53,486 nt of DNA from Opitutaceae bacterium (lineage in GTDB: Bacteria; Verrucomicrobiota; Verrucomicrobiia; Opitutales; Opitutaceae), in NCBI GenBank assembly GCA_027485815.1, contig JAIXQE010000164.1, positions 1 through 53,486 of the forward strand. Reading direction: 5' to 3'. The position numbers were made by a program, and so were the translations under genes. How positions within the stretch are numbered: the first letter of the stretch is position 1; every line of letters begins with the position of its first letter. The notes under the pieces were generated by a model. That model had not been told where the DNA came from. It saw nothing but the letters and a program-made list of their open reading frames with translations, and did not search any database. Positions 19,093-53,486 of the stretch are shown one piece after another.

Positions 19093-19129
19093 GTCCCGCC
19101 GGCGCCCCTCCGCGCGCCGGATCTTTCCG

Positions 19130-19160
19130 GGCGGCGTCCCCTGCGGACGCCGCCTTTTTT
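19130..19160 (+). terminator. Rho-independent terminator after the rhodanese gene
   Basis: A 10-bp perfect stem GGCGGCGTCC / GGACGCCGCC with a 5-nt loop is followed directly by six T on the plus strand, 38 bp after the rhodanese stop. It isolates the glycolipid operon from upstream transcription. Confidence 0.93.
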
Positions 19161-19191: not shown

Positions 19192-19219
19192 CGTAACCGG
19201 AGCGCCACGGATTCGCGAC
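19192..19219 (+). promoter_or_regulatory. Candidate Pho box upstream of the glycolipid operon
   Basis: Three hexamers lie in exact 11-bp register: CGTAAC (19192), CGCCAC (19203), CGCGAC (19214). The first matches the consensus seen before pstS; the other two keep the outer C-G and A-C. The array ends 31 bp before the GTG start of the first gene, so a promoter using it would give a very short or leaderless message. Confidence 0.6.
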
Positions 19220-19250: not shown

Positions 19251-20405
19251 GTGAACCTCGCCCTCGTCACCGAAACGTTTCCGCCGGAAGTCAACGGCGT
19301 GGCGATGACGTTCGGGGTCATCGCGCGGGAGCTCGGCCGCCGGGGCCACGCCCTGACGGTCTACCGGCCGCGCCGGGACGATCTCGCGGCGCTTCCGGCC
19401 TCCGATGATTATTCGGTCGTCTCGCTCCCGGGCTTCGCGGTCCCCGGCTATCCGCTGATCCGGCTGGGGCTGCCCGCGGGAGGCCGCCTCCGCGCCGCTT
19501 GGGTGAAGGCGAGGCCCGATCTGGTGCACGTCGCGACGGAGGGTCCGCTCGGGGCTTCCGCCGTCGCGAGCGCCCGGGCGCTGGGTATCCCGGTGACCTC
19601 GAGCTTCCACACCAACTTCCACGCCTACGCCCGCCACTATCGGGCCGGACCATTCCGTGGCATCGTGCTCGCGTGGCTTCGCTGGTTGCACAACCGGACC
19701 CGGCGGACCTTTGCACCCACCCGCGAACTCATCGCCGAGCTAGCCGGGGCGGGGTTCCGCGACCTGGCGCTGATGTCCCGCGGGGTGGATACCCTCTGTT
19801 TCCACCCGCTGCGCCGTTCGGCGGAACTGCGCCGGACCTGGGGGGCGGATGACGACCACCCCGTCGTGCTGCACGTCGGCCGGATGGCGCCGGAGAAGGA
19901 CTACGACCTCCTGTTCCGCTGCTACGCGGCGATGCGCGCGGTCCACCCCGGGCTGCGCTTCGTGCTGGCGGGGGAGGGACCGTTGCGGGCTGGGTTGGAG
20001 CGCGCGCATCCCGAGTGCCACTTCGCGGGCTTCCTGTCCCGCCCGGAGATCGGCGCCTACTACGCCTCCGCCGACCTCTATATCCACGCGAGCCGAACCG
20101 AGACCTTTGGTAACGTGCTGACCGAGGCGATGGCGAGCGGGCTGGCAGTGGCGGGCTTCGACTACGCGGCGGCCCGGCAGTTCGTGCGGCACGGGGAGAA
20201 CGGCCTCGTCGCCCCGCTCGACGCGCCCGAGGCGCTGATCGCCGCCGCGGAATTGCTGGCGGGTGATCCCTTCCTTCGCGCACAACTCGGGCGCGCCGCG
20301 CGGCTGGCGGTCGAGCAGCACTCCTGGGAACGGGTGATCGCGGATTTCGAGCGGGATCTGCTGCAGTCCGCGGCCCTGGCGCCCGCGGGCGGAGGCCTCT
20401 CATGA
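19251..20405 (+). CDS. GT4-family glycosyltransferase, probable glycolipid synthesis
   Basis: This is a 384-residue protein starting at GTG 19251 with the family N-terminus 'LALVTETFPPEVNGVAMTFG'. It has the GT-B layout of GT4 enzymes such as MgtA, SqdX and PimB: donor-site features 'HVGRMAPEKDYDLLFRCYA', the Ex7E motif in SRTETFGNVLTEAMASG (nucleotide-sugar binding), and 'PVTSSFHTNFHAYARHYRAG'. It is first of four genes joined by ATGA overlaps and followed by a diacylglycerol glycosyltransferase, a lipid kinase and a PlcP-like phosphoesterase. I infer it glycosylates diacylglycerol or extends a glycosyl-diacylglycerol at the cytoplasmic membrane. No SqdB homologue is nearby, so sulfolipid synthesis is less likely. 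A phosphate-type box precedes it. Confidence 0.85.
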   Translation: MNLALVTETFPPEVNGVAMTFGVIARELGRRGHALTVYRPRRDDLAALPASDDYSVVSLPGFAVPGYPLIRLGLPAGGRLRAAWVKARPDLVHVATEGPLGASAVASARALGIPVTSSFHTNFHAYARHYRAGPFRGIVLAWLRWLHNRTRRTFAPTRELIAELAGAGFRDLALMSRGVDTLCFHPLRRSAELRRTWGADDDHPVVLHVGRMAPEKDYDLLFRCYAAMRAVHPGLRFVLAGEGPLRAGLERAHPECHFAGFLSRPEIGAYYASADLYIHASRTETFGNVLTEAMASGLAVAGFDYAAARQFVRHGENGLVAPLDAPEALIAAAELLAGDPFLRAQLGRAARLAVEQHSWERVIADFERDLLQSAALAPAGGGLS

Positions 20406-21538
20406 CCCGGCGCATCCTCGTCCTTACCGCCGGCTTCGGCGATGGCCATAACGCCGCGGCCCGCGCGGTGGCGCAGGCGTGGGACGAGCGCGAGGGGGAA
20501 GGCGCCGCCGTCATCGCCGATCCCTTGGCCGACGCTTACCCCGCCACCAACGCGGTCCTGCGGCGGGCGTATTTGGCCGCCATCAACCGGCTGCCCGGGG
20601 CGTGGCGTGCACTCTACGGATGGATGGATCGATCCAAGCTGCTGCCGCAGCTGCTGGGGCGAGCTCCCGGCGATGCGCGGGTCCTCCGCGCGCTGCTCGA
20701 GCGCCATCAGCCCCTCGCGGTGGTCTCCACCTTCCCGGGACATAACTTCACGCTCCGGCACCTCGAGCGGGCCGGCGTGCCCGTGCCGCCGCGCTTCACG
20801 GTGGTGACCGACTCCATCAGCCTCAATTCGCTCTGGTGGACGGGGGAATCCACCGCGTGGTTCGTCCCGAACGAGGACTCCGCCGCCGTCCTGCGCGCGG
20901 CCGGCGTGCCTGACGAGCGGGTCGAGGTGACTGGGTTCCCGGTGCCCCCCGTCTTCGCGCGCCTCGGCAGCACGCTGGCGCCCCCGGCCCTCGGCGCCGG
21001 AGGGCGTCCCCGCATTCTGGTGATGATCCACTCCGGCCGGCGCGGAGCGGAGCGGACGGCGCGGCTCCTGCTGCGGGAGACCGGGTGGGACCTGACGTTC
21101 GCCGTGGGGCGGGACGACCGCCTGCGCGCGCGGCTGACCGCGCTCGCGGCCCACCGGACGGGTGTCACGCTGCTGGGTTGGACCCGCGAGATTCCGCAGC
21201 TGCTCCTGACGCACCACGTCGTGATCAGCAAGGCCGGCGGGGCCACGACCCAGGAGGCACTCGCCGCGGGCTGCCCGATGGTGGTCAGCCAGGTCGTTCC
21301 CGGGCAGGAGGAGGGCAATTACGAGTTGCTCCGCCGTCACGGGATCGGCGCGCTGGCGGAGACCCCGGAAGCAGTGGTGAGCGTGCTGCGGGAGGCGTTC
21401 GCGCGGGAGGGGGCCGTCCTCACCCGTTGGCGGACGGCAGTGGCGGGGCTGCGGCGGCCTCACGCAGCCAGGGAGATCGTGGACCGGGTTGAGGCGCGCC
21501 TCCGTGGCGAGGCCGCCGGGGCGGCGGTGGTCCGATGA
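20402..21538 (+). CDS. MGDG-synthase/UgtP-type diacylglycerol glycosyltransferase (GT28 fold)
   Basis: This is a 378-residue protein, ATG 20402 overlapping the previous stop. The N-terminal domain has 'LTAGFGDGHNAAARAVAQAW', the G-x-G-H-x-x-A-A signature of the MGDG synthase family, and 'VSTFPGHNFTLRHL'. The C-terminal donor domain has 'LLGWTREIPQLLLTHHVVIS' and 'KAGGATTQEALAAGCPMV', with 'PGQEEGNYELL' as in UgtP and MurG relatives. These enzymes transfer glucose or galactose from a UDP-sugar to diacylglycerol at the inner membrane face. Here it would consume diacylglycerol released from phospholipid by the fourth gene's product. The sugar cannot be read from sequence. Family assignment is confident, lipid acceptor inferred. 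Confidence 0.9.
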   Translation: MTRRILVLTAGFGDGHNAAARAVAQAWDEREGEGAAVIADPLADAYPATNAVLRRAYLAAINRLPGAWRALYGWMDRSKLLPQLLGRAPGDARVLRALLERHQPLAVVSTFPGHNFTLRHLERAGVPVPPRFTVVTDSISLNSLWWTGESTAWFVPNEDSAAVLRAAGVPDERVEVTGFPVPPVFARLGSTLAPPALGAGGRPRILVMIHSGRRGAERTARLLLRETGWDLTFAVGRDDRLRARLTALAAHRTGVTLLGWTREIPQLLLTHHVVISKAGGATTQEALAAGCPMVVSQVVPGQEEGNYELLRRHGIGALAETPEAVVSVLREAFAREGAVLTRWRTAVAGLRRPHAAREIVDRVEARLRGEAAGAAVVR

Positions 21539-22479
21539 AGGCGGTCTTCATCCTCAATCCCCACGCGGGGCACAACCGGCGGCGGCCCGGCCTGCGGCAG
21601 CAATTGCGGGAGTTTGCGGCCACCTGTGCCGGGGGGGGCAGGTTGGAGGTCACGGAGGGTCCGGGGCACGCGCGCGAGTTGGCGCGTGCGGCGGCCCAGC
21701 AGGGCGCCGAGGTGGTGGCGGCGGTGGGGGGAGATGGTACGATGAACGAGGTGGCGCAGGGCCTCCTGGGCGCGCCGACCGCCCTCGCGCTGGTGCCCTG
21801 TGGCTCGGGGAATGGCTTAGCCCTGCATCTCCGGGTCCCCCGGTCCCTGCCGGGCGCCCTGCGGCTCGCGATCGATCCGGAGGCCACGGTGCGGGAGATC
21901 GATTCCGGGGAGGTGGCGGGGCTGCCGTTCTTCAACGCGATGGGCATCGGGCTCGATGCCGACATCAGCCGTCGCTTCAACGGCTTGGAGCGCCGGGGCC
22001 TACCCGCGTACATCCGCGCGGGCTGGTCCGCGTGGCGGGAGCGCCGGCCGGTGCAGTGCACGCTGGAGGTCGGGGCCGAACGGCACGCCCTCGCGGCGCT
22101 GCTGGTCTCGGTGTTGAACTCGGATCAGTACGGGAACAACGCGCGCATCGCCCCCGGGGCGGAGGTCGACGACGGCGCCCTCGATCTGGTGGCGGTGACG
22201 GCGCCCGGCGTGTTGGGCGTCGCGCGCCTGCTGCCCCGCCTGTTCTTGGGCTCGCTCCAATCGGCGCCGGGGGTTCTGCGCCGCTCCGCCCGTCGTTTCG
22301 CGCTGGTCCGGACCGCGCCCGGTCCGCTCCACACCGACGGCGAGGTGCACGCCGGACCCGCGCGACTGGAGGTCGTGGTTCGCCCTCGCAGCCTTCGGGT
22401 GCTCGTGCCCGGGTTGCCCGGCCGCGTGGCCAGGCCCATCGACCAGGCCGCGCGTTCCTTCGCCCTCCTGATCCCATGA
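21535..22479 (+). CDS. Diacylglycerol-kinase-family lipid kinase (DAGKc)
   Basis: This is a 314-residue protein, ATG 21535 within the previous stop codon. The DAGK catalytic domain shows 'FILNPHAGHNRRRPGL' at the N-terminus, the glycine-rich nucleotide motif 'VGGDGTMNEVAQGLLG' (about residues 64-79), and 'VPCGSGNGLALHL'. The C-terminal lobe includes 'NALGIGLDAD'-like (here 'NAMGIGLDADISRRF') and 'HTDGEVH'. Members phosphorylate diacylglycerol, sphingosine or related lipids with ATP. In this operon it could return excess diacylglycerol to phosphatidate, balancing the glycosyltransferase; a different lipid acceptor is equally possible. It overlaps the next gene by ATGA. Confidence 0.92.
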   Translation: MKAVFILNPHAGHNRRRPGLRQQLREFAATCAGGGRLEVTEGPGHARELARAAAQQGAEVVAAVGGDGTMNEVAQGLLGAPTALALVPCGSGNGLALHLRVPRSLPGALRLAIDPEATVREIDSGEVAGLPFFNAMGIGLDADISRRFNGLERRGLPAYIRAGWSAWRERRPVQCTLEVGAERHALAALLVSVLNSDQYGNNARIAPGAEVDDGALDLVAVTAPGVLGVARLLPRLFLGSLQSAPGVLRRSARRFALVRTAPGPLHTDGEVHAGPARLEVVVRPRSLRVLVPGLPGRVARPIDQAARSFALLIP

Positions 22480-23276
22480 AGCTCAACGTCCGCACCGTGA
22501 TCCTCTCGGACCTCCACCTCGGCACGACCGATTCCAAGGTCGATGAGGTGAACCACTTCCTGCGCCACATCCACTGCGCGAAGCTGATCCTCAACGGTGA
22601 CATCATTGACGGCTGGCAACTGCGCCGCGGCGGGCGCTGGACCAAGGCCCATACCCGCTTCGTGCGGATCGTGCTCAAGAAGCTCGAGAAGCGCGACACG
22701 CAGGTCGTCTACCTCCGCGGCAATCACGACGATGTCCTGGGCGCTTTCCTCCCGCTCGAGTTCGAGGGCCTCGCCGTGGTGGAGGAGCACATCCACGAGG
22801 CCGCCGGCGGCCGCTACCTGGTGCTGCACGGGGACATCTTTGATACCGTAACCAAGAACTTCGTCTTCCTCGCGCACCTGGGCGACTGGGGCTACGGGGT
22901 GCTGCTGACCCTCAACCGCCTCTACAACCGCTGGCGCGCGTGGCGGGGGAAGGAATACTGGTCGCTGAGCAAGGCCATCAAGGCGCGGGTGAAGGAGGCG
23001 GTGAACCACATCTCCAATTTCGAGCAGCACATCGCCCAGCTCGCGCGCGAAAAGGGCTGCCAGGGCGTGATGTGCGGCCACATCCACACGGCCGCGGACA
23101 AGCGCATCGGCGACATCCACTACCTCAACTCCGGGGACTGGGTGGAGTCGCTGACCGCGATCGTCGAGCACTGGGACGGGCGTTTCGAGCTGGTGGATTT
23201 CGCGTCCTTCGTCCGCCGGTTTCCGCTGCCGGCCCCGGATGCGATCGAGCCGGGCGCGGAACTGGCCGAGGTCTGA
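22476..23276 (+). CDS. PlcP/LpxH-type metallophosphoesterase, candidate phospholipase C of lipid remodelling
   Basis: This is a 266-residue protein (COG2908 family), ATG 22476 overlapping the previous stop. Calcineurin-like metal motifs are all present: SDLHLG (D12, H14), NGDIIDG (D42), RGNHDD (N83, H84), HGD (H118, D120) and CGHIH (H202, H204). The stretches 'GKEYWSLSKAIKARVKEAVN' and 'YLNSGDWVESLTAIVEHWDG' fit the longer LpxH-like subgroup often annotated as UDP-2,3-diacylglucosamine diphosphatase. That subgroup includes PlcP, the phosphate-starvation phospholipase C of rhizobia and marine bacteria. The operon partners (two glycosyltransferases and a diacylglycerol kinase) and the phosphate context favour PlcP over LpxH; no lpx gene is adjacent. 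The function is inferred from context. Confidence 0.85.
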   Translation: MKLNVRTVILSDLHLGTTDSKVDEVNHFLRHIHCAKLILNGDIIDGWQLRRGGRWTKAHTRFVRIVLKKLEKRDTQVVYLRGNHDDVLGAFLPLEFEGLAVVEEHIHEAAGGRYLVLHGDIFDTVTKNFVFLAHLGDWGYGVLLTLNRLYNRWRAWRGKEYWSLSKAIKARVKEAVNHISNFEQHIAQLAREKGCQGVMCGHIHTAADKRIGDIHYLNSGDWVESLTAIVEHWDGRFELVDFASFVRRFPLPAPDAIEPGAELAEV

Positions 23277-23312: not shown

Positions 23313-23361
23313 GCCGGTTTCGGCCTCGTTCCGGCTGCCCACCCCCGGTTACCCTTTCCCA

Positions 23362-25503
23362 GTGAGCCCTGCCCGCAAGTCCGCCTCCCGCCTCCGTCAT
23401 CCGGTTCGTACTGAGCCCGCCTTGCCGGCTGGCGACCCCGCCCGCTTCGGCAACCGCGAGCAGAGCTGGCTCGCCTTCAACCAGCGAGTCCTCGATCAGG
23501 CGCGAAACGAGGCCAATCCCCTGCTTGAGCGGGTCAAGTTCCTCGCGATCGCCAGTTCGAATCTCGACGAGTTCTTCGAGATCCGCGTCGCCGGGTTGCG
23601 GCAGCAGGCGGATTCCGAGGTGGCTCCGCTCAGCCTGGACGGGCTCACGCCGCGCGAGCAACTCCGGCGGGTGCGGGTCGAGGTTGGCGCGATGGTGGAC
23701 GCGCAGCATCGGTGCTGGCAGGAAGAGCTGGTGCCACTCCTGGCGCGCGAGCGGCTCGTCTTCCGTCCCGCCCAGGAGCTGGACGCCGCGGAGCTCGCCT
23801 GGGTCCGGCGTCATTTCAGCGAGCAGGTGCAGCCCGTCCTCACCCCCTTGGCGGTGGATCAGGCGCACCCCTTTCCGCTGCTCGGCAACAAGACGCTGAG
23901 CCTCCTGGTTCTGCTGCGCCAGGAGGAGGATCCCGCCGCGGAGCCCGTGCTCAGCATCGTGCCCGTCCCCCGCAGCCTGCCGCGCATCCTGCGTCTCTGC
24001 CCCGGCGAGCCCGGCCCGGACCGGTTCCTGTTCCTCAGCGAGATCCTCAAGCTGTGCGTGGGGGAGCTGTTTCCAGGCTACTGCGTCCTCGGGGCCCACG
24101 CGTTCCGCGTCACCCGCAACAGCGACCTCTACATCGACGAGGAGGAGGCGGAGAACCTGCTCAAGAAGATCGAGGACGAGCTGCGCAACCTCCGCCGCGG
24201 CGCCGCGGTGCGGCTCGAGGTCGAGCACGGCGTCGATCCCTGGGCCCTCGCGGAGCTGGTGCGCCACCTCGGCCTGCCGGAGGACGCGGTCTACGCGCAG
24301 CCCGCCCCGCTCAATTTCCTGCGCCTGATGGCGCTGCACGACCTCGTCGACCGGCCGGACCTCAAGTACCCGCCCTTCACCGGCGCCGACTGCGCGGCCC
24401 TCGCCGGGGGCCGCCCGGTCTTCGATGCCGTCCGCGAGCGCGACCTCCTGCTGCACCATCCCTACGACAGCTTCGCCCCCGTGGTGACCTTCGTCCAGGA
24501 GGCGGCGCGAGACCCTGAGGTGCTCGCGATCAAGCAGACCCTCTACCGCACCAGCGGCGACTCGCCGATCATCGAGGCCCTGATCGAGGCCTCACTGGCG
24601 GGCAAGCAAGTGACCGCCCTGGTCGAGCTGATGGCCCGCTTCGACGAGGCCAACAACATCAAGTGGGCCCGCGAGCTGGAAGAAGCGGGCGTGCACGTTG
24701 TCTACGGGGTGGTCGGCCACAAGACGCACTGCAAGTGCTGCCTCGTGATCCGACGGGAGAGCGGAGTGCTGCGGCGCTACGCGCACCTCGGCACCGGCAA
24801 CTACAATCCGCGCACGGCGCGGCTCTACACCGACCTGAGCCTGCTGACGGCGCGGGAGACGCTCACCGCCGAGGTGGCCCAGCTCTTCAATTCGCTCACC
24901 GGCCTCGGCCGCGCCCCTGAGTTCCGCCATCTGCTGGTGGCCCCGTTCAACCTTCACGCGCGGATCCTCGAGCTGATCGCCGCGGAGACGGCCCACGCCC
25001 GGGCGGGTCGGCCGGGACGCATCATCGCCAAGATGAACAAGCTGGTGGACCCGCACGCCATCGAGGCGCTTTACGCGGCGTCGCAGGCCGGCGTGGAGAT
25101 CGACCTCATCGTCCGTTCCACCTGCTGCCTCGTGCCGGGGGTGAAGGGGCTCAGCGAGAACATCCGGCTGCGCAACCTCGTGGGCCGGTTCCTCGAGCAC
25201 GCGCGGATCTTCGTGTTCGGCCAGGGCGGAAATCCGGCGGTGTACGCCGGGAGCGCGGACTGGATGCCCCGGAACTTCTTCCGGCGCGTGGAGGCGGTCT
25301 TCCCCGTGGAGGATCCGGTCCTGCGCCACCGGATCCTCGACGAGATCCTGGCCTCCGAGTTGCGCGACACGGTCGACGCCGCGGGTCTGCGGTCGGATGG
25401 GACGTACGCGTCGCTGGTCCCGGCGGAAGGCGCGGCGCCCTTCCAGGCGCAACGCCACTTCATGACCCTCGCGCAGGCGCGGACCGCGGCGGCCGCGCCT
25501 TGA
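23362..25503 (+). CDS. ppk1: Polyphosphate kinase 1
   Basis: This is a 713-residue protein (family about 690-730) that polymerises the gamma-phosphate of ATP into polyphosphate and runs in reverse at need. GTG 23362 was chosen: it precedes a short variable leader, then the family start 'FGNREQSWLAFNQRVLDQA' and 'LERVKFLAIASSNLDEFFEI'. Catalytic histidines are at about residue 456 (GHKTHCKC) and 475 (AHLGTGNYNP), the same 19-residue spacing as in the E. coli enzyme. 'IKQTLYRTSGDSPIIEALIE' and 'NIKWARELEEAGVHVVYG' are also conserved. It lies 85 bp after the PlcP-like gene with a phosphate-type box in the gap, and its stop is 13 bp from the convergent phosphatase stop. Confidence 0.97.
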   Translation: MSPARKSASRLRHPVRTEPALPAGDPARFGNREQSWLAFNQRVLDQARNEANPLLERVKFLAIASSNLDEFFEIRVAGLRQQADSEVAPLSLDGLTPREQLRRVRVEVGAMVDAQHRCWQEELVPLLARERLVFRPAQELDAAELAWVRRHFSEQVQPVLTPLAVDQAHPFPLLGNKTLSLLVLLRQEEDPAAEPVLSIVPVPRSLPRILRLCPGEPGPDRFLFLSEILKLCVGELFPGYCVLGAHAFRVTRNSDLYIDEEEAENLLKKIEDELRNLRRGAAVRLEVEHGVDPWALAELVRHLGLPEDAVYAQPAPLNFLRLMALHDLVDRPDLKYPPFTGADCAALAGGRPVFDAVRERDLLLHHPYDSFAPVVTFVQEAARDPEVLAIKQTLYRTSGDSPIIEALIEASLAGKQVTALVELMARFDEANNIKWARELEEAGVHVVYGVVGHKTHCKCCLVIRRESGVLRRYAHLGTGNYNPRTARLYTDLSLLTARETLTAEVAQLFNSLTGLGRAPEFRHLLVAPFNLHARILELIAAETAHARAGRPGRIIAKMNKLVDPHAIEALYAASQAGVEIDLIVRSTCCLVPGVKGLSENIRLRNLVGRFLEHARIFVFGQGGNPAVYAGSADWMPRNFFRRVEAVFPVEDPVLRHRILDEILASELRDTVDAAGLRSDGTYASLVPAEGAAPFQAQRHFMTLAQARTAAAAP

Positions 25504-25516
25504 GCGGGAGGCGGCC

Positions 25517-26878
25517 TCAGGGCTGCTTCGGCGCGCGGCGGTGCTCCCGCGGGAGCGCCTCTTCCAGCACGTTCGGCTGGCCGGTCCGCTTTCGCAGGGT
25601 GAACGCGTCGTAGAGGCGGTTGGTGGCGGTGCGGGCCTCATAGCGGAGCTCGTCGCCATCCACCGTGATCAGCTGGAACAACTGGGTGTCTTCGGCGAAC
25701 CGCACCGCCCACGCGTCGCCCGGGGAAAGATCGTACATTTTGGGCCCGCTCACCGAGACCACGTACACGGTGCCGATCGCCGGGTCGTAGGCCTGGTTGT
25801 AGCCCTTGGGCAAGTTGACCTCCGCCGCATGAGCCTTCCGGGTGACGTCGCCGCTGCGGGCATAGGTGTGGTCGTGGCCGGTGAGGACCAAGTCCACCTT
25901 GAACTCATCAAAGACGGGCTTCCAGAGCTCCCGGAGCTTCGCGTTGTCGCGGTTCCGGGCCGGCGAGAAGATCGGGTGGTGGAAGGTGATCACGGTCCAG
26001 CGCTGCGGGTTGTTCCGCAGCACCTCGCGCAGCCAGGGCACCTGCTCGGCCGGGAGGTCATTGGAATTGAGCGAGATGATGCGCGCGCCCTGATAGTCGA
26101 AGTAATACACGGTCTCGGCCAGCGCGGGCTGGTCGCGGGGCCCGTTCTCGGGGAGGGTGAAGTGCGGGCGCCAGTTGCGGCTGAGGATCCGCGGGGCCGC
26201 CGCGTCCTTCTCGTCGAGCTTCCCGTACTCGTGGTTGCCCGGGGTCGGAACGACCGGGATGGTGGCGTTGACCCAGCCGGGAGCTCCGAGCCACTCGCCC
26301 CACTGGGCGTCGTTGTGGGCGTTGTTGATCAGGTCGCCCGCGTGCAGCGTGAACGCGGCCCGCGGCGCCTCCTGGAAGGCCTCGCGGAAGACCCGCGACC
26401 AGTGCGTGCGGATGTCGTTCTGCGCATCCCCGAAATAGATGAACGTGAAGCGCGCGGGTCCCGCGGCGGCGGTGCGGAAGTGGAACCATTCGCTCCAATT
26501 GACCCCGTCGCCCACGCGGTACGCGTACAGCGTGCCCGGGGTGAGGCCGGTGAATTCCGCCGCGTGCGCGAGGGCGGAGCCGAGGCTGGACTCGTAGCGG
26601 GCGGAGCGCACCGGCACCGGAGTCCCCTTGAGCTCCTTCCCGGAATCCAGCGCGCGCGTCACCTCGGCGGTTGCCCGGGTCACGGAGAGATCGGTGCGCC
26701 AAGTCACCGCTTGAGTGGTCGCGGGGTCGCCGCTCCAGGTCAGCACGATGCGATCCGGGAGCGGACGCGGGGCGTGCGTCTCCTTTTCCGGGAAGGCGGC
26801 GGGGGTCGGAGCGGTCTGGGCGCCGGTGGAGACGACGGCGAGGGCCGAGCAGAGGGCGAGGGCGGGCAGGAATTTCAT
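25517..26878 (-). CDS. Secreted purple-acid-type metallophosphatase
   Basis: This is a 453-residue protein with a signal peptide (MKFLPALALCSALAVVSTGA). The N-terminal fibronectin-like domain ('PDRIVLTWSGDPATTQAVTW') is typical of purple acid phosphatases. The metallophosphoesterase core has 'YFGDAQND', 'HAGDLINNAHND', 'PTPGNHEYG', 'TFHHPIFSP' and 'LTGHDHTYARSGD', all expected metal ligands. It should hydrolyse phosphomonoesters outside the cytoplasm to release phosphate. It converges with ppk1 and has a triple 11-bp repeat 130 bp upstream, so phosphate control is likely. A leader of that length leaves room for another site: a single GTTACG also occurs at 26957. Confidence 0.93.
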   Translation of the reverse strand: MKFLPALALCSALAVVSTGAQTAPTPAAFPEKETHAPRPLPDRIVLTWSGDPATTQAVTWRTDLSVTRATAEVTRALDSGKELKGTPVPVRSARYESSLGSALAHAAEFTGLTPGTLYAYRVGDGVNWSEWFHFRTAAAGPARFTFIYFGDAQNDIRTHWSRVFREAFQEAPRAAFTLHAGDLINNAHNDAQWGEWLGAPGWVNATIPVVPTPGNHEYGKLDEKDAAAPRILSRNWRPHFTLPENGPRDQPALAETVYYFDYQGARIISLNSNDLPAEQVPWLREVLRNNPQRWTVITFHHPIFSPARNRDNAKLRELWKPVFDEFKVDLVLTGHDHTYARSGDVTRKAHAAEVNLPKGYNQAYDPAIGTVYVVSVSGPKMYDLSPGDAWAVRFAEDTQLFQLITVDGDELRYEARTATNRLYDAFTLRKRTGQPNVLEEALPREHRRAPKQP

Positions 26879-41461: not shown

Positions 41462-42532
41462 ATGCCTCGTGCCCTCGTGTTCCTCGGCAGCCTGCTGGGC
41501 GGCCTCCTCCTTGTAGGCTGCTCCCGGTCTCCGGCGCCGGATCCACTGGCGGGCCGACCGCCCGTCAAACCGAGGATCGTGACGGCTCCGGTACCGCACG
41601 ATGCGGACGATCCGGCCATCTGGATCCACCCGACCGATCCCGCGCGCAGCCTCGTGCTGGGGACGGACAAGCACCGCGAGGGGGGACTCTACGCGTTCGA
41701 CCTCGATGGACGGATCATCGCCCGGGTGGCGCCCCTTGCCCGCCCCAATAACGTGGACGTGCTGCGGGGCGTGCGGCTGGGCGGGACGGAGGTTGACGTG
41801 GCGCTCGTCACCGAGCGCGAGGCCGGCCGGCTCAGGGTGTTCCGCCTGCCCGACCTCGTTCCCGTTGATGACGGCGGCCTTCCCGTGATGGATGGCGATC
41901 CGGCGCGGGCCCCGATGGGCGTCGCCGGATATCGTCGCGCGCGCGATGGGGCCACGTTCGCCATGGTCGGAGGCAAGGGAGGGCCAACCGAAGGTTACCT
42001 TTTTCAATATCGGCTGGCGGAGTTGTCTCCGGGAGTGCTGGGCGCCACCAAAGTGCGATCCTTTGGTCGCTACAGTGGCCGCAAGGAGATCGAGGCGATC
42101 GCGGTCGATGCGGAGCGGGGCTGGGTCTACTTCAGCGACGAGGGATTTGGCGTCCGCAAATACGCGGCGGATCCGGAGGCGCCCGCGGCAGACGCGGAGC
42201 TGGCGGTGCTGGGGCGCGAGGGTTTCGCCGGGGATCACGAGGGCATCGCCATCCGCCGGGAGGCGTCGGGCCGCGGGATCCTCGTGGTCTCCAACCAGCA
42301 GGCGTGGACCTTCCGCCTGTTCGCGGCCGAGGGTCCGCCCGAGCGGCCCCACGAGCACCGGCTGCTCGGGAGCGTCCGCCTCTCCACGCGGGAGACCGAC
42401 GGCTGCGACGTGACCGCCGTCGAGCTGCCTGGTTTTCCGGGAGGACTCTTCGCCGCGATGTCCGACGATCGCACGTTCCACCTGTACGCCTGGGCCGATC
42501 TCTGGGCCGCCGTGAACCCAGCCACGCCGTAA
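41462..42532 (+). CDS. Beta-propeller phytase (3-phytase) lipoprotein
   Basis: This is a 356-residue protein. The N-terminus has a lipoprotein signal (MPRALVFLGSLLGGLLLVGC, lipidated Cys at about residue 20, lipobox LVGC). The mature part matches BPP phytases: 'DADDPAIWIHPTDPARSLVL', 'LARPNNVDVLRGVRLGGTEV', 'GRYSGRKEIEAIAVDAERGW', 'VYFSDEGFGVRKYAADPEAP' and 'GREGFAGDHEGIAIRREASG'. These contain the acidic calcium and phosphate site residues expected for calcium-dependent hydrolysis of phytate. It should be anchored in an envelope membrane and release phosphate from inositol phosphates. A repeat pair precedes it, and the next box begins within its stop codon. Confidence 0.93.
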   Translation: MPRALVFLGSLLGGLLLVGCSRSPAPDPLAGRPPVKPRIVTAPVPHDADDPAIWIHPTDPARSLVLGTDKHREGGLYAFDLDGRIIARVAPLARPNNVDVLRGVRLGGTEVDVALVTEREAGRLRVFRLPDLVPVDDGGLPVMDGDPARAPMGVAGYRRARDGATFAMVGGKGGPTEGYLFQYRLAELSPGVLGATKVRSFGRYSGRKEIEAIAVDAERGWVYFSDEGFGVRKYAADPEAPAADAELAVLGREGFAGDHEGIAIRREASGRGILVVSNQQAWTFRLFAAEGPPERPHEHRLLGSVRLSTRETDGCDVTAVELPGFPGGLFAAMSDDRTFHLYAWADLWAAVNPATP

Positions 42533-48236: not shown

Positions 48237-48296
48237 TGTCGCGGAGATGTGGCCCAAGCGTAACCTGAATGTCACCTGAGTGACGCGCGGGTGACG
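48237..48296. promoter_or_regulatory. Six-unit Pho-type array in the receptor/pstS gap
   Basis: TGTCGC (48237), TGTGGC (48248), CGTAAC (48259), TGTCAC (48270) lie in exact 11-bp register pointing right; after 4 bp, GTGACG (48280) and GTGACG (48291) are 11 bp apart and point left toward the receptor start at 48172. The two inner pairs fit best; the first two units are weaker. Confidence 0.75.
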
Positions 48297-48369
48297 GGGG
48301 AAGGTGGGGCGCGTCCGAGCCTTTCCGAGCGGCGCAATGCAGCTTGCGGGCTGCGCTTCTTCGTCCACT

Positions 48370-48397
48370 CGTAACGCTTTCGACGCGAATCCGTAAC
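48370..48397 (+). promoter_or_regulatory. Candidate Pho box for the pst operon
   Basis: CGTAAC (48370) and CGTAAC (48392) are identical hexamers 22 bp apart, with CGACGC in the middle 11-bp register (48381). They point to pstS, whose ATG is 193 bp downstream of the second hexamer. Confidence 0.7.
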
Positions 48398-48589: not shown

Positions 48590-49393
48590 ATGAAATTCCC
48601 CGTCCTCTTCCTGCTGTTGTTGGCTGCTCCCGGGCTGCGTGGGGAGAAGCTGGTCATCAAGGGATCCGACACGCTGGGCGCGAAGCTGGTGCCCACCCTC
48701 GCCGAGGAATACAAGGCGACGCGCCCCGGGGTCGCCTTCGAAATTGCGGCCGAGGGGTCGACGACGGGGATCTCGGCCATCATCGAGGGCACGGCCCAGA
48801 TCGGGATGAGTTCGCGGGAGGCGAAGGCCACGGAGGTCTCCGCCGCCGCGGCGCGGGGCGTGCGCCTGAATGGCATCGTCGTGGCCTTCGATGGACTGGC
48901 CGTGATCGTTAATGCCCGCAACCCGATCGCCCGGCTCACCCCGCGGCAGGTCGAGCAGATCTTCGCGGGGGATGTCACCGACTGGTCCGCCGCGGGCGGC
49001 CGGCCGGGCAAGATCTCCGTCTATACCCGGAACACCTCCTCGGGGACGTATTCCGACTGGAAGGACCTTGCGATGCGCAAGCGCGACTACGCCCGGTCCT
49101 CGCAGAAACTGGCAGGCAACGAGCAGATCGTTGCCGAAGTGGCCCGGAACCCGAACGGCATCGGCTACGTCGGCCTGGCCTACCTCAAGGCGGCCGGGAT
49201 CAAGGTGCTGCCGATCAACGGGGTCGCGCCCACCCGGGAAAACATCTTGGGCAAGAAGTACGCCTACGCCCGGCCGACCTACTTCTATTGTAACGGGGAG
49301 CCGGCGGGTGAAGCCGCGCGGTTCGTGGAGTTCACCTTGGGTGACGGGGGGCAGGCGATCGCCGATCGCCTCGGCTTCGTGCCGGTACGTTGA
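48590..49393 (+). CDS. pstS: PstS phosphate-binding periplasmic protein
   Basis: This is a 267-residue protein with a signal peptide (MKFPVLFLLLLAAPGLRGEK). The phosphate-binding fold shows 'KLVIKGSDTLGAKLVPTLAE' at the N-terminus, 'IAAEGSTTGISAIIEGTAQI' and 'GMSSREAKATE' (Ser/Thr loop), 'TRNTSSGTYSDWKDL' (anion loop) and 'NPNGIGYVGLAYLKAAGIKV'. It binds phosphate and hands it to PstCA. It is shorter than the E. coli protein, as in the PstS-like group of many environmental bacteria. The MKF start was chosen for its signal peptide; the frame is open far upstream without a plausible start. pstC follows after 8 bp. Confidence 0.95.
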   Translation: MKFPVLFLLLLAAPGLRGEKLVIKGSDTLGAKLVPTLAEEYKATRPGVAFEIAAEGSTTGISAIIEGTAQIGMSSREAKATEVSAAAARGVRLNGIVVAFDGLAVIVNARNPIARLTPRQVEQIFAGDVTDWSAAGGRPGKISVYTRNTSSGTYSDWKDLAMRKRDYARSSQKLAGNEQIVAEVARNPNGIGYVGLAYLKAAGIKVLPINGVAPTRENILGKKYAYARPTYFYCNGEPAGEAARFVEFTLGDGGQAIADRLGFVPVR

Positions 49394-49401
49394 TCCAGCC
49401 C

Positions 49402-50991
49402 ATGTCTGCGACTGGTCCCCGCCCAACCCTGTTCGTCCGCCGCCGACTGCGGTTCCTTGGCTTGACGCCCGACGACGCGATCCGCGCGTTCTTCGGCGGC
49501 AACGCCGTGGTGGCGGTCGTGGTGCTGGCGCTGATCACGTACTTCCTCGTGCGGGAGGGGGCGGGCTTCTTCGGGCAAAACCGCCGCAATCTTGAGGTCT
49601 ACCGGCTGGCCGGGCTGGAATTCGTCGACCATCTCCGGGCGCAGGAGGAGGCGCATACGGCCCTCACGCGGCGGTTGTCGGAGCTGCGCCTGAAGGCGTT
49701 CGCCCGCCTGAGTGCCGGGACCGACGGGGCGGAGGCGGCCGAGCGGGCGCTGGCGGTGTTCGACGCCTACGCGGAGCGCTTTGGGGCGGCGATCGATCCC
49801 CTGCGGGCCTTGGGAAGCGAACTCGCCGAGGTCGCCACCGGCATCAAGACGAAGTTCATGGTCAATGAGGACCGCAAGGAGGAGCGGCGCCAGCTGATCG
49901 CGGAGGGAAAGGCCGGGGAGGCCGCCCGGGTCGGGGTGGTCCCGGTTGATTTCGCCGCCGAGGCGCGGCCGCTTTTGGCGGCGCGGGAGCGGCATCGGGA
50001 GGTCAATCGGGTGCTCGCGACGGAGTTGCTGGCGTTGCAGGCCGCCCCGCCCGCGCCGCCGGTGCCGGAGCTCCGGGATTTGCTCGAACGATTCGGCGCG
50101 GAGGTGCGTTCCTATGTGGCCGAATTGCCCGCCATCGAACGCCGACTCGAGACCTGGGACCAGGCCAAGCCCGTGGCCGCCGGGGAGGCGTTGCGCGCGT
50201 TTCTTTTCGGGCGGCAGTGGCTGACGGCCAGTTTCTGGCAGGATTGGTATGGGCTGCTGCCGCTGCTCACCGGTTCCCTGCTGGTCGCCGGCGTGGCCCT
50301 GACGTTGGCGGTTCCCCTCGGCGTGGGCGCCGCCATCTACGTCAACCAGTTCGCCTCCGTGCGGGAGCAGCGCGTGGTCAAGCCGGCCATCGAATTCATC
50401 TCGGCGTTCCCCTCGGTCGTCCTCGGGTTCTTCGGCATCGCGGTCCTCGGTGAGGTCCTGCGGCAGGTGTCGCAGCTTCCGTGGCTGGCCTGGGTCCCTG
50501 GCTTCCCCTTCAGCGAGCGGCTGAACGTGCTCACCGCGGGTTGCCTGCTCGCGCTGATCGCCGTTCCGACGATCTTCACTCTGGCGGAGGATGCGCTGAA
50601 CAACGTGCCCCGCGCCCTGCCCGAGGCCTCCCTCGCGCTCGGGGCTTCCCGCCTGCAGACCACCCTGCGCATCGTGTTCCCCGCGGCGCTGTCCGGGATC
50701 ATCTCCGCGGTCCTGCTCGGCCTCGGCCGGGTGATCGGGGAGACGATGGTGGTGCTGCTCTGCGCGGGGAACCGCATCGCGATTCCGGATTTCACCCAGG
50801 GGCTCGGCGTGATGGTCGAACCCGTGCACACGATGACGGGCATCATCGCGCAGGAGATGGGGGAGGTGGTCCGCGGCAGCATCCATTACCGCGCGCTCTT
50901 CATGGTCGGGCTGGTCCTCTTCCTGCTCTCCCTCGCGATCAACTTCCTCGCCCAGCGCATCCTCCGGCGCTACCGGCTGGCCCCCAGTTAA
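49402..50991 (+). CDS. pstC: PstC phosphate permease with large periplasmic helical insertion
   Basis: This is a 529-residue protein, far longer than the usual about 320. ATG 49402 was preferred to a TTG at 49390. The first membrane segment is at about residues 34-51. Residues about 60-265 form a hydrophilic, Glu/Arg/Ala-rich, mostly helical insertion before the permease proper, which resumes at '[20 protein letters not shown]'. The binding-protein-dependent transport domain follows, with '[20 protein letters not shown]', '[20 protein letters not shown]' and the EAA-type loop '[20 protein letters not shown]'. It forms the membrane channel with PstA. The insertion is probably periplasmic, since it follows the first helix. 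pstA follows after 4 bp. Confidence 0.94.
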
Positions 50992-50995
50992 GCCG

Positions 50996-52036
50996 ATGTC
51001 CGCGCCCACTCATCGTTTCACGCCCCGGTCCGGCGCCCGCCGGCTTCGCGAGGCCGTCGTGGTGGCCCTGTTCCGTGCCGCCACCTACGCCGTGCTGTTG
51101 GCGGGCGGCGGGGTGTTCGCGGACATCCTCTACAAGGGCAGCCGGACGGTGTTCCAGGCGGAGGCGCCCTTCATCAACACCACCTTCCTGTTCTCGTCGC
51201 CGGAGTCCCTGCACGTCTTCGAGTGGGAGGGCCGCCGGCGGGAGATGGGAGACCGCGAATTTCGCGCCTTCCGCGAGCGCGAACCGGGCGCGGCGGACGT
51301 GCGCGCGGAAAGCTTCGTCTATTCCGCGGGCGGCATCTGGCCATGCATCGCGGGGACGCTGCTGCTCGTGGCCGGCGCGATGAGCCTCGCCCTGGCCGTC
51401 GGCGTGAGCTCCGCCGTGTACCTGAGCGAATACGCCCGCGACGGAAGGTTCATCCGCTTCGTGCGCCTCGCGATCCTCAACCTGGCCGGAGTGCCCTCGA
51501 TCGTCTTCGGCCTGTTCGGCTTCGGGATGTTCGTCATCTTCTTCGGCTGGAACGTTTCGCTGATCGCCGGCTGGTTCACGCTCGCCTTCATGGTCCTGCC
51601 GGTCGTCATCACCGCCAGCGAAGAGGCGCTCAAGGCGGTGCCCCAAGGCCTGCGCGCCGCGGCGCTCGCCCTCGGGGCCACCCGTTGGCAGACGATCCGG
51701 ACGGCGGTGCTGCCCTACGCGCTCCCCGGGATCCTCACGTCCTCCATCCTCGGCATCGCGCGCGTCGCCGGCGAGACGGCCCCGATCATGTTCACCGCGG
51801 CCTACGTCGTGCGCGACCGACTCCCGTGGGAGGTGGAGCGGGCCGTGGACTTCCTCTTCCAGGGGGTGATGGCGTTGCCGTACCACATCTACGTGGTGAG
51901 CTCCAAGATTCCCCAGAACGAGTACACCGAGCGCGTGCAGTACGGCACGGCCTTTGTCTTCCTGCTGCTGGTCGCGCTCGTCGCGGCCGCCTCCATCCTG
52001 CTCCGCAACCGCCTGCGCGCCCGCCTGCGCTGGTGA
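50996..52036 (+). CDS. pstA: PstA phosphate permease
   Basis: This is a 346-residue protein (usual about 290-300). The first membrane segment lies at about residues 22-42. A charged segment at about 60-108 ('[20 protein letters not shown]') separates it from the second, so this subunit also has a modest extracytoplasmic insertion. The permease domain includes '[20 protein letters not shown]', '[20 protein letters not shown]' and the ABC-contact loop '[20 protein letters not shown]'. It pairs with PstC and the ATPase PstB. It begins 4 bp after pstC and ends 18 bp before pstB. Confidence 0.95.
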
Positions 52037-52054
52037 CGTCGCCTCCCGCGTCCG

Positions 52055-52834
52055 ATGCCGAACCAAACCACCGCCTCGTCCCCGATCGTCGAGATCAGCG
52101 AACTCGACTTCTGCTATGGGTCCGTGCCGGCCCTCCACGGGGTCAACCTCTCGATCCCCGCCCGCCAGGTCACGGCGCTGATCGGCCCGTCCGGCTGCGG
52201 CAAGTCGACGCTGCTGCGCTGCCTTAACCGGATGAACGACCTGATCGAGGGCGCCCGCGTGGTCCGCGGCTCCATCCGCATCCACGGGGTCGATATCCAC
52301 GGCCCGGAGGTTGACGTGATCGAGCTCCGCAAGCACGTCGGGATGGTCTTCCAGAAGTCGAATCCGTTCCCGAAGTCCATCTACGAGAACATCGCCTACG
52401 GGCTCAGGCTCCAGGGGGTCCGCGACCGGGCCCGCCTCGATGCGGTCGTGGAGCAGTCGCTGCGCGGCGCCGCGCTGTGGGACGAGGTCAAGGACCGGCT
52501 GCAGCAAAGCGCGCTCGGGCTCTCCGGCGGGCAACAGCAGCGGCTGTGCATCGCGCGCACGATCGCCGTCGAACCCGAGGTCATCCTGATGGACGAGCCG
52601 TGTTCCGCCCTCGACCCGGTGGCCACCGCCAAGATCGAGGAACTCATCCAGGAACTGAGATCCCGTTACTCGATCGTGATCGTCACCCACAACATGCAGC
52701 AGGCGGCGCGCTGCTCCGACCAAACCGCGTTCTTTTACCTCGGACGCCTCATCGAGCACGCCCCGACCCGTGACATCTTCACCAGCCCGGCCAACCCGCA
52801 AACCGAGGCCTACGTCTCCGGCCGGTTCGGCTGA
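52055..52834 (+). CDS. pstB: PstB phosphate-transport ATPase
   Basis: This is a 259-residue protein of normal length. Walker [10 protein letters not shown] (about residues 43-51) is followed by '[20 protein letters not shown]', the PstB-specific 'CLNRMNDLI' stretch. The Q-loop is in '[20 protein letters not shown]', the signature is [19 protein letters not shown], and Walker B is [13 protein letters not shown]. The late H-loop is '[17 protein letters not shown]'. It energises PstCA. phoU begins 20 bp downstream. Confidence 0.97.
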
Positions 52835-52854
52835 GTCAGGCCCATGCATTCCCT

Positions 52855-53486
52855 ATGACCCACTACGCTGAGGAGCTCTCGCGGCTGAAGGACAGCCTGC
52901 TGGCGATGGCCAGTCACGCCGAGTCCGCGGTTTCCCGCGCGATGCGCGCCCTCGTGGAGCGCGACGACACGCTGGCCCAGGCGGTGATCGACGACGACAA
53001 CATCCTCGACCAGTTCGAGATCGAGATCGACGACACCGCGATCCACCTCCTCGCCAAGGCCCCGCTCGCCACCGAGCTGCGCCTGATCACGGAGGGCATG
53101 AAGATTTCCCAAAACCTCGAGCGCGTGGGCGACGAGGCCGTCACCATTGCCCGGCGCGCGATCGAGCTCAGCACCGAGCCCCAGCTCAAGCCGTATGTGG
53201 ACCTGCCCCGGATGGCCACGATGTCGCTGGAGATGCTGCGGGGTGCGATCACGGCCTTCGTGCAACGCGACGCGGCGGGTGCGCGCCGCGTGATTCCGCG
53301 CGATCGGGAAGTGGACGAGCTCAATCGGCAGCTGCACCGCGAGCTCTCGAGCTTCATGGTGGAGCGCCCCCAGACCATCACGCGCTGCCTCAAGCTGATG
53401 GTCATTTCCAAAGCGATCGAGCGCATCGCGGACCATGCCACCAACATCGCCGAGGAGGTCGTCTATCTCTACGAAGCAAAGGATAT
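52855..53486 (+). CDS. phoU: PhoU phosphate signalling regulator (3' end outside window)
   Basis: ATG 52855 opens a frame that runs off the right edge (about 210 residues seen of about 220-240). It starts 'THYAEELSRLKDSLLAMASH' and shows the two PhoU three-helix repeats: 'DDDNILDQFEIEIDDTAIHL' with 'GMKISQNLERVGDEAVTIAR', and 'VDELNRQLHRELSSFMVERP' with 'VISKAIERIADHATNIAEEV'. The conserved E/D-rich metal-binding helices (R-x-G-D-E and R-x-x-D-H) are present in both halves. PhoU links Pst activity to the sensor kinase and represses the Pho regulon when phosphate is plentiful. Confidence 0.96.
   Translation, partial: MTHYAEELSRLKDSLLAMASHAESAVSRAMRALVERDDTLAQAVIDDDNILDQFEIEIDDTAIHLLAKAPLATELRLITEGMKISQNLERVGDEAVTIARRAIELSTEPQLKPYVDLPRMATMSLEMLRGAITAFVQRDAAGARRVIPRDREVDELNRQLHRELSSFMVERPQTITRCLKLMVISKAIERIADHATNIAEEVVYLYEAKD

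What the first reader, a model, noticed from the sequence alone, without database searches (positions are those of the whole stretch)
19251..23276. Four-gene ATGA-coupled operon looks like a phosphate-starvation lipid-remodelling pathway in a verrucomicrobial genome
A GT4 glycosyltransferase, an MGDG-synthase/UgtP-type glycosyltransferase, a diacylglycerol-kinase-family enzyme and a PlcP/LpxH-type phosphoesterase are joined by three 4-bp ATGA overlaps. PlcP-type phospholipase C releases diacylglycerol from phospholipid in rhizobia and marine bacteria, where glycosyltransferases then make glycolipid. Here both halves and a recycling kinase are one transcription unit, preceded by a repeat array and followed by ppk1. 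The combination with a GT28-type enzyme and a kinase is one I do not know as a described system.
Basis: partly seen in the sequence, partly recalled or inferred. Interest (0 to 1): 0.85.

Follow-up and report, generated by a model that had tools for sequence, protein, structure and literature searches.

The report
Phosphate-controlled membrane lipid swapping operon
Four overlapping genes in a verrucomicrobial bacterium, lying among phosphate-scavenging genes and behind what looks like the same phosphate-starvation control site, read as a kit that swaps phosphorus-containing membrane lipids for sugar lipids; the core of the kit is already known from other bacteria, while the extra sugar enzyme and the lipid kinase make a new combination.

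Summary
The four genes, coordinates and three ATGA overlaps are as described; ppk1 follows. The "repeat array" in front was not found; an 11-bp-periodic Pho-box-like element stands there. The phosphoesterase is PlcP-type, not LpxH: tree, motifs and identities agree, and the genome has LpxI. The GT4 resembles the glycosyltransferases beside plcP elsewhere. Phosphate control: a motif built from upstream regions of 23 other genomes also hits, within this window, sites upstream of pstS, a purple acid phosphatase, a phytase-like gene and TonB receptors. The window is a phosphate island. In the family the GT4-PlcP core recurs while GT28 and kinase come and go (A-D, A-C-D, A-B-D, A-B-C-D, A-D-B). In related families GT4 and PlcP are fused in one protein. 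Substrates, sugars and the kinase's role are inferred, not shown.

The parts
19129..19155 (+). terminator-like hairpin followed by a T run, between the upstream rhodanese-domain gene and the operon
   Evidence: 11 pairs, 9 GC; the scan expects 2.7 hits by chance in the region and found 2, so weak on its own; sequence
19192..19219 (+). Pho-box-like element: CGTAAC-N5-CGCCAC-N5-CGCGAC, three half sites 11 bp apart, 31 nt before the GTG start
   Evidence: found in 28 of 28 Opitutaceae-type upstream regions scored (28 of the 39 printed, the dropped ones are listed under Tried and rejected); same motif before pstS and phosphatase genes
19251..20405 (+). gene A: GT4 glycosyltransferase resembling the Agt-type enzymes beside plcP (predicted diacylglycerol glycosyltransferase)
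   Evidence: PF13439, PF00534; a profile of A hits the GTs beside plcP in Sphingomonas, Roseomonas and a Pseudomonas plasmid at 210, 210 and 175 bits; 31-38% identity
20402..21538 (+). gene B: MGDG-synthase/UgtP-type (GT28-like) diacylglycerol glycosyltransferase
   Evidence: PF06925; plant MGD1 (4wyi) and a processive DAG beta-glucosyltransferase (9wde) are the only PDB relatives found by sequence; His of the GxGH motif invariant in 14 of 14 rows
21535..22479 (+). gene C: YegS/DgkB-type lipid kinase (predicted DAG kinase)
   Evidence: PF00781 + PF19279; GGDGT motif invariant in 15 of 15 rows; a second gene of the family, 43% identical, lies on contig C214
22476..23276 (+). gene D: PlcP-type phospholipase C (calcineurin-like phosphoesterase)
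23359..25503 (+). ppk1, polyphosphate kinase 1; directly downstream, possibly co-transcribed, own promoter not shown
   Evidence: same adjacency in G007, G009, G019, G021 and G024
48259..48397 (.). Pho-box-like elements before pstS (48259+, 48370+) and, on the other strand, before a TonB receptor (48296-)
48590..53486 (+). pstS, pstC, pstA, pstB and phoU (phoU cut by the contig end): phosphate uptake operon in the same window
   Evidence: gene names given from Pfam domains and gene order
25517..26878 (-). purple-acid-phosphatase-like gene with a Pho-box-like site at 27035-

Best explanation
A phosphate-starvation lipid-remodelling operon of the PlcP-Agt type, enlarged by two modules. When phosphate is short, a PhoB-like regulator binds the 11-bp-periodic element at 19192-19219 and switches on the four genes. 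D (PlcP) splits phospholipids such as phosphatidylethanolamine or phosphatidylglycerol into diacylglycerol (DAG) and a phosphorylated head group whose phosphate is reused. A (GT4, Agt kind) puts a first sugar on DAG. B (UgtP/MGDG-synthase kind) makes either a second neutral glycolipid from DAG or lengthens the sugar chain. C (lipid kinase) turns surplus DAG into phosphatidic acid, so that DAG does not pile up and the lipid can go back to phospholipid. Shown by computation here: gene content, coupling, conservation, PlcP rather than LpxH kinship, recurrent modular association, shared Pho-box-like motif. Inferred from family knowledge: substrates and products. Least supported: the role of the kinase and the division of labour between A and B.
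For: PlcP side: D is 44-50% identical to phosphoesterases of Sinorhizobium meliloti, Roseomonas, Pseudomonas, Mitsuaria and Parabacteroides and 26% to E. coli LpxH over 196 residues; the tree parts 24 PlcP-side rows from 5 LpxH-side rows with support 100/99; GNHDD, HGDxFD and CGHIH against LpxH's GNRDFL, HGDxxC and xGHTH (alignment). LpxI in the same genome and in 35 of the 38 genomes searched, LpxC too. In 40 loci taken from that sample (37 with D, 3 with B only) the orders A-D, A-C-D, A-B-D, A-B-C-D, A-D-B and D-B all occur. Within the genus B and D are found in the same 19 of 25 genomes. GT4 and PlcP are one reading frame in 18 of 80 named loci. Phosphate control: motif from 23 other upstream regions, window and four near relatives left out; in this window the next 9 hits after the operon's own are all intergenic and 7 of 9 stand upstream of a gene in the right direction (background 0.070 and 0.039), among them pstS twice, the purple acid phosphatase and the phytase-like gene; 0 of 300 column-permuted motifs did as well. 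Mitsuaria sp. 7 also has its plcP-like gene directly before ppk1.
Against: No expression, lipid or enzyme data. The motif is not proven to be a PhoB site; no protein in the genome passes NCBI's PhoB cut-off (best 245.9 against 296.2 bits; only 2 of 14 control genomes pass it). I saw the 11-bp spacing by eye at pstS and the operon before the test, and the motif alignment was seeded with the operon's own three hexamers. The three-half-site motif does not carry over to other families: score 10 or more in 6 of 48 upstream regions, simulated p under 0.01 in 8 of 48; many best hits there read, by eye, as a two-unit TGTGAC-N5-CGTCAC form. The A-C-D loci L167, L176 and L178 did not show it either. 2 of the 9 further hits in the window (42576-, 42587-) face no gene, and 2 of 300 permuted motifs reached the top score. 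6 of 25 genomes of the genus lack B and D (three of these six are under 90% complete), and G018's copy looks broken. A passes no curated cut-off; its best NCBIfam model is N-acetylglucosaminyl phosphatidylglycerol synthase (139.4 of 480 bits), so its acceptor might not be DAG. The site near ppk1 (23312-) points away from ppk1. A kinase that returns DAG to phospholipid seems to work against remodelling.
Confidence: 0.85

Rival explanations
1. D is the lipid A enzyme LpxH and the operon belongs to lipopolysaccharide synthesis.
For: D matches Metallophos and, weakly, the LpxH models (45.3 bits against a cut-off of 134; 23.4 against 190.35); plasmid homologues are annotated 'UDP-2,3-diacylglucosamine diphosphatase'; the only PDB relatives found by sequence are UDP-2,3-diacylglucosamine hydrolases at E about 0.0006-0.009.
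Against: LpxI present; tree and motifs; far below both LpxH cut-offs; the partners are DAG-type enzymes; not found in 6 of 25 genomes of the genus (three of them under 90% complete), which an essential step should not be.
Confidence: 0.03
2. The operon makes structural glycolipids all the time and has nothing to do with phosphate.
For: No expression data; MGDG/UgtP enzymes make constitutive glycolipids in other bacteria (family knowledge, recalled).
Against: PlcP partner, Pho-box-like element also found before pstS and phosphatase genes, location in a window with pst-phoU, phytase, purple acid phosphatase and ppk1.
Confidence: 0.08
3. The kinase C does not act on free DAG as a recycling valve but on another lipid (for example a glycosyl-DAG, a sphingoid base or phosphatidylglycerol), making a phosphorylated product.
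For: The YegS/BmrU family has varied substrates (recalled); the profile also finds sphingosine kinase; the genome has a second DAGK-family gene, 43% identical, that could be the housekeeping one.
Against: The best relatives with structures are DAG kinases, BmrU and YegS (98-115 bits against 41 for sphingosine kinase); C is coupled to a DAG-releasing enzyme; C recurs with A and D without B, so it does not need B's product.
Confidence: 0.3

Closest known systems
PlcP-Agt lipid remodelling (marine heterotrophs PMC4796936; Pseudomonas aeruginosa PMC8528852; Methylosinus trichosporium PMC9239053; Sinorhizobium meliloti, recalled)
   Same: PlcP beside a GT4 DAG glycosyltransferase, often as an operon with a Pho box upstream (PMC4796936 section 13 read; passages of the others)
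   Different: Gene order with the agt-like gene first and plcP last; extra UgtP/MGDG-type glycosyltransferase and lipid kinase inside the operon; Pho-like element with three 11-bp units; Opitutaceae-type genomes instead of Proteobacteria
plcP beside a Bacillus-like DAG glycosyltransferase in type Ia methanotrophs (Crenothrix, Methylobacter; PMC9239053, passages)
   Same: PlcP plus a DAG glycosyltransferase likened there to the Bacillus subtilis enzyme
   Different: No agt immediately next to it there, and no kinase mentioned in the paper's main text (0 occurrences of 'kinase')
Bacillus UgtP / plant MGD1 (glycosyl-DAG synthases)
   Same: Gene B matches over nearly its whole length
   Different: Far under the equivalog cut-offs (130.4 of 500 bits); coupled to PlcP
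DgkB/BmrU/YegS lipid kinases
   Same: Catalytic and C-terminal domains, GGDGT motif
   Different: Inside a glycolipid operon; the TIGR00147 subfamily cut-off is just missed (114.4 of 118.65 bits)

Membership tests
PlcP | clusters with PlcP, apart from LpxH | tested here: met
   24 rows against 5, support 100/99, midpoint root; the tool warns of long branches (Bacteroides LpxH-like, Fuscovulum); the S. meliloti and other references were taken by similarity, not from a characterised accession
PlcP | metallophosphoesterase motifs of the PlcP form (SDxHL, GDxxD, GNHD[DE], HGDxFD, CGHIH) | tested here: met
   (the last motif read from the alignment: MCGHIH in the window's protein)
PlcP | DAG release from phospholipids | not testable with these tools
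   enzyme assay needed
PlcP | phosphate-starvation control | tested here: inconclusive
   strong motif evidence, no expression data
LpxH | GNRDF motif and score over the LpxH model cut-off | tested here: not met
   GNHDDV; 23.4 bits against 190.35 and 45.3 against 134
LpxH | sole UDP-diacylglucosamine hydrolase of a lipid A pathway | tested here: not met
   LpxI present; whether another LpxH exists in the genome was not tested
Agt (GT4 DAG glycosyltransferase) | sequence kinship with GTs beside plcP | tested here: met
   not compared with the characterised Agrobacterium or Pelagibacter sequences themselves
Agt (GT4 DAG glycosyltransferase) | over a curated equivalog cut-off for a lipid glycosyltransferase | tested here: not met
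   best 139.4 of 480 (GlcNAc-phosphatidylglycerol synthase), next 81.3 of 400 (monoglucosyl-DAG synthase)
Agt (GT4 DAG glycosyltransferase) | makes MGDG or GADG from DAG and UDP-sugar | not testable with these tools
   assay needed
MGDG synthase / UgtP | PF06925 domain over the cut-off, GxGH histidine | tested here: met
MGDG synthase / UgtP | over an equivalog model's cut-off | tested here: not met
   130.4 of 500 and 89 of 557 bits
YegS/DgkB lipid kinase | DAGK_cat and YegS_C domains, GGDGT motif | tested here: met
Pho regulon (PhoB) | direct repeats 11 bp apart upstream, also before pst genes | tested here: met
   published form CTGTCATNNNNCTGTCAT (PMC8528852, passage)
Pho regulon (PhoB) | PhoB binds and activates | not testable with these tools
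   a PhoB-like regulator at G000:C138 scores 245.9 of 296.2 bits

The most novel reading that the evidence does not exclude
The operon is a complete, reversible DAG hub: one Pho-controlled transcript makes the enzyme that strips phosphate off membrane lipids, two different glycosyltransferases that compete for or build upon the freed DAG, and a kinase that sends DAG back towards phospholipid, so the cell can set the ratio of glycolipid to phospholipid and undo remodelling when phosphate returns. The verrucomicrobial GT4-PlcP fusion proteins would then be the extreme form, in which DAG passes between two active sites of one protein.
Probability: 0.4. Interest if true: 0.68.

Novelty: new variant of a known kind. 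Interest (0 to 1): 0.52.

Why it matters
Lipid remodelling under phosphate shortage is a major phosphorus-saving device of bacteria, known best from marine Proteobacteria. This shows it, with a candidate control site, as a conserved and modular operon in Opitutaceae-type Verrucomicrobiota, adds two further enzymes to the unit, and points to named strains (Luteolibacter marinus, Haloferula sp., Persicirhabdus sediminis) in which lipase and glycosyltransferase are one protein. How a cell keeps freed diacylglycerol from accumulating, and how it reverses remodelling, becomes directly testable.

Tried and rejected
Repeat array before the operon: searched for three ways, not found. LpxH reading: tested and rejected. 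Pho control of ppk1 by its own box: the only site there (23312-) has two good half sites and points the wrong way; not claimed. Carry-over of the three-half-site motif to other families and to A-C-D operons: mostly failed (8 of 48 at simulated p under 0.01). The glycosyltransferase beside the Parabacteroides PlcP was suspected to be B-like; it matched none of the four profiles at 1e-3. The distant Fuscovulum homologue (34%) beside a ceramide glucosyltransferase was seen, kept as a row in the tree on a long branch and not used further. No structure prediction was run: I judged that it would not tell PlcP from LpxH or show the kinase's substrate.

Rows dropped before counts: of 39 upstream regions printed, 28 were scored; left out were L056 (broken operon), L057-L061 (other families of the order), L258, L267 (same upstream sequence and contig length as L045, a duplicate), L167, L176 and L178. 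Of these, L167, L176 and L178 were tested later and failed; L056, L057-L061 and L258 were not scored. In one search I used 16 of 18 fused loci (not L233, L247), 27 of 32 loci with separate A and D (not L202, L223, L225, L230, L260) and 5 loci. Related sequences are not independent, so the simulated p values are not those of 28 separate events; the independent support is the hits elsewhere in the window. The gene table for searches comes from a codon-score gene finder with some starts set by hand. The 80 loci are the best of a capped list, and several are cut by contig ends, so the tallies are not frequencies.
Full report
What is there. Four + strand genes, A 19251-20405, B 20402-21538, C 21535-22479 and D 22476-23276, overlap by ATGA at each junction. 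Domain searches give GT4 for A, MGDG_synth for B, DAGK_cat plus YegS_C for C and Metallophos for D; ppk1 follows. In front stand a rhodanese-domain gene, a terminator-like hairpin at 19129-19155 (not above chance on its own) and the control element described below. The window is one whole contig (C21) of a genome of 4.08 Mb in 232 contigs. A contig of the same-family genome G374 has the length of one titled Opitutaceae bacterium (148770; L182, L256), and one of the same-genus genome G012 has the length of one titled uncultured Opitutae bacterium, isolate ErkenSummer (29229; L045, L267). I therefore take the organism to be of the Opitutaceae, by inference.

Is it a real unit? Among 25 genomes of the genus, 19 have D and the same 19 have B; the other 6 show neither, apart from one weak partial hit to D in G001 (38% identity). 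Three of the six are under 90% complete. Of the 18 relatives with D, 16 show A, B, C and D in this order; in one (G015) the contig ends inside B, and in G018 the unit is broken. Four-base overlaps are seen at 17 of 17, 16 of 17 and 15 of 17 readable junctions; the exception at B/C (L040) is a reading frame that runs through B into C, perhaps an assembly error.

PlcP or LpxH? D is 44-50% identical to five phosphoesterases of the PlcP group and 26% to E. coli LpxH over 196 residues. A 29-row tree separates 24 PlcP-side rows from four LpxH and one Bacteroides LpxH-like row at 100/99; 9 of its 26 inner branches are open, and the tool warns of long branches (Bacteroides LpxH-like, Fuscovulum). D has GNHDD and CGHIH where LpxH has GNRDF and GHTH. 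The lipid A pathway has LpxC and LpxI. D is therefore PlcP-type; its activity is inferred.

Partners. A's profile finds the glycosyltransferases beside plcP of Sphingomonas (210 bits), Roseomonas (210) and a Pseudomonas plasmid (175); characterised enzymes of that kind make monoglucosyl- and glucuronosyl-DAG (PMC8231724 and PMC8528852, passages). Against this, A passes no curated model, and its best NCBIfam match is N-acetylglucosaminyl phosphatidylglycerol synthase (139.4 of 480 bits). B aligns with plant MGD1 over nearly its whole length and with a processive DAG beta-glucosyltransferase. C's nearest solved relatives are DAG kinases, BmrU and YegS. The genome has a second DAGK-family gene, 43% identical to C.

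A modular system. In a phylum sample 118 of 387 genomes have D (E 1e-20) and 139 of 387 a B-like gene (E 1e-10). Neighbourhoods of 40 chosen loci from 39 genomes (37 with D, 3 with B only) show, in the window's own family: A-B-C-D (L168, L169, L170, L173, L174, L175), A-B-D (L161, L171, L172), A-C-D (L167, L176, L177, L178; L179 has C-D), A-D-B (L162, L163), A-D (L184) and D alone (L180, L182, L183); elsewhere D-B (L164, L165, L166), A-D (L154, L185, L186, L187), D alone (L155, L156, L157, L181) and fused A-D (L148-L153). In 80 named loci from a genome scan, the best of a capped list, the tallies are A-D 30, D alone 18, fused A==D 17 plus one with a split A, A-B-C-D 7, A-B-D 2 and single cases of five other kinds. 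So GT4-PlcP looks like the core; GT28 and kinase vary separately. The fusion is a single open frame of 647-659 codons in the five looked at closely, four of them named strains: Luteolibacter marinus NBU1238, Haloferula sp. BvORR071, Persicirhabdus sediminis and Verrucomicrobiaceae bacterium E54. A fusion of the two enzymes is good evidence that they act in one pathway.

Phosphate control. The 11-bp spacing was first seen by eye before pstS and the operon. All 28 scored Opitutaceae-type upstream regions hold (T/C)GT(A/C)AC-like, CGCCAC-like and CGxxAC-like hexamers 11 bp apart, 29-76 nt before the start (the alignment was seeded with the window's own three hexamers); the weakest is L052. In the 16 genus loci the mean score was 23.5 and the lowest 10.4, against at most 0.9 in 48 coding stretches before B, C and D starts. 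A motif built from 23 regions (window and four near relatives left out) was run over the whole window. After the operon's own site (25.6) come 48296- (21.7), 42576- (21.6), 48370+ (19.4), 42528+ (18.9), 48259+ (16.7), 27035- (16.5), 30090- (16.0), 42587- (14.7) and 34503+ (14.4). Forty first-order Markov copies of the window gave on average 0 sites at 18.85 or more and 0.05 at 16.67 or more. All nine are intergenic (background 0.070) and seven stand within 350 nt upstream of a gene in the right direction (background 0.039): pstS twice, a TonB receptor beside it, a purple acid phosphatase, another TonB receptor, the phytase-like gene 34555-36387 and the gene at 42638; the two at 42576- and 42587- do not face a gene. 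Of 300 column-permuted motifs the best had 3 intergenic and 2 upstream sites among nine, though 2 of 300 reached the top score of 21.7. The spacing equals that of the published Pho box CTGTCATNNNNCTGTCAT (quoted in PMC8528852). The window also holds pstS, pstC, pstA, pstB, phoU, a phytase, a phytase-like protein and a purple acid phosphatase, so the operon lies in a phosphate island. The three-unit motif did not carry over to most loci of other families (8 of 48), where a two-unit form TGTGAC-N5-CGTCAC is common by eye. No regulator in the genome passes NCBI's PhoB cut-off.

Mechanism. Best reading: Pho-controlled release of DAG from phospholipid by D, glycosylation by A and B, and return of surplus DAG by C. 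Shown: sequence kinship, coupling, co-occurrence, shared control motif. Inferred: all substrates. Least certain: the kinase's role, since a return route to phospholipid costs phosphate; it may act as a safety valve or in recovery.

What is known. PlcP with agt or with bta genes in six neighbourhood types, with putative Pho boxes, was described for marine bacteria, and a verrucomicrobial single-cell genome was among the carriers (PMC4796936, section 13 and passages). A Bacillus-like DAG glycosyltransferase found with plcP is mentioned for type Ia methanotrophs, and PlcP was not found in verrucomicrobial methanotrophs (PMC9239053, passages and section 8). A search of the held library for plcP, diacylglycerol kinase, glycolipid and operon together found 0 papers; searches for a PlcP-glycosyltransferase fusion and for Opitutaceae listed none that by title and start of abstract describes it. 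The library lacks most subscription journals, so this is weak evidence of novelty.

Verdict.

Noticed in passing
L218:3355-5313, L220:3355-5313, L226:3349-5313, L266:3376-5355, L209:3349-5292; also L148-L153: GT4 glycosyltransferase and PlcP are fused into one protein of about 650 aa in Luteolibacter marinus, Haloferula, Persicirhabdus and relatives (18 of 80 loci; 6 of 6 loci L148-L153).
   Followed up: partly
window 23359-53486: The window is a phosphate island: ppk1, purple acid phosphatase, phytase (41579-42532), phytase-like protein (34555-36387), pstSCAB-phoU and several TonB receptors, some with the same Pho-box-like motif.
   Followed up: partly
window 42638-45321: A gene without Pfam match (42638-43735) followed by an overlapping GH3-family gene (43732-45321), with Pho-box-like sites at 42528+ and 42576-; what a GH3-like acyl-acid ligase would do in a Pho regulon is unclear.
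   Followed up: no
L280 (Mitsuaria sp. 7 plasmid): A plcP-like gene directly followed by ppk1 in a betaproteobacterium, the same neighbour pair as in the window.
   Followed up: no
L159, L160, L158: B-like glycosyltransferases inside much longer open frames (655, 656 and 994 codons) in loci without PlcP (families f21 and f25): possibly other fusions.
   Followed up: no
L056 (G018:C190): A degraded copy of the operon: truncated A, B present, no C found, D with a stop and a frame shift.
   Followed up: no
L272 (Fuscovulum blasticum plasmid): A 34% identical phosphoesterase lies in a run with a ceramide glucosyltransferase, a VTT-domain protein and another glycosyltransferase; perhaps a different lipid-remodelling set.
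   Followed up: no
G000:C138:1-660: The best PhoB-like regulator starts at base 1 of its contig, while the window ends inside phoU; the two contigs may adjoin.
   Followed up: no
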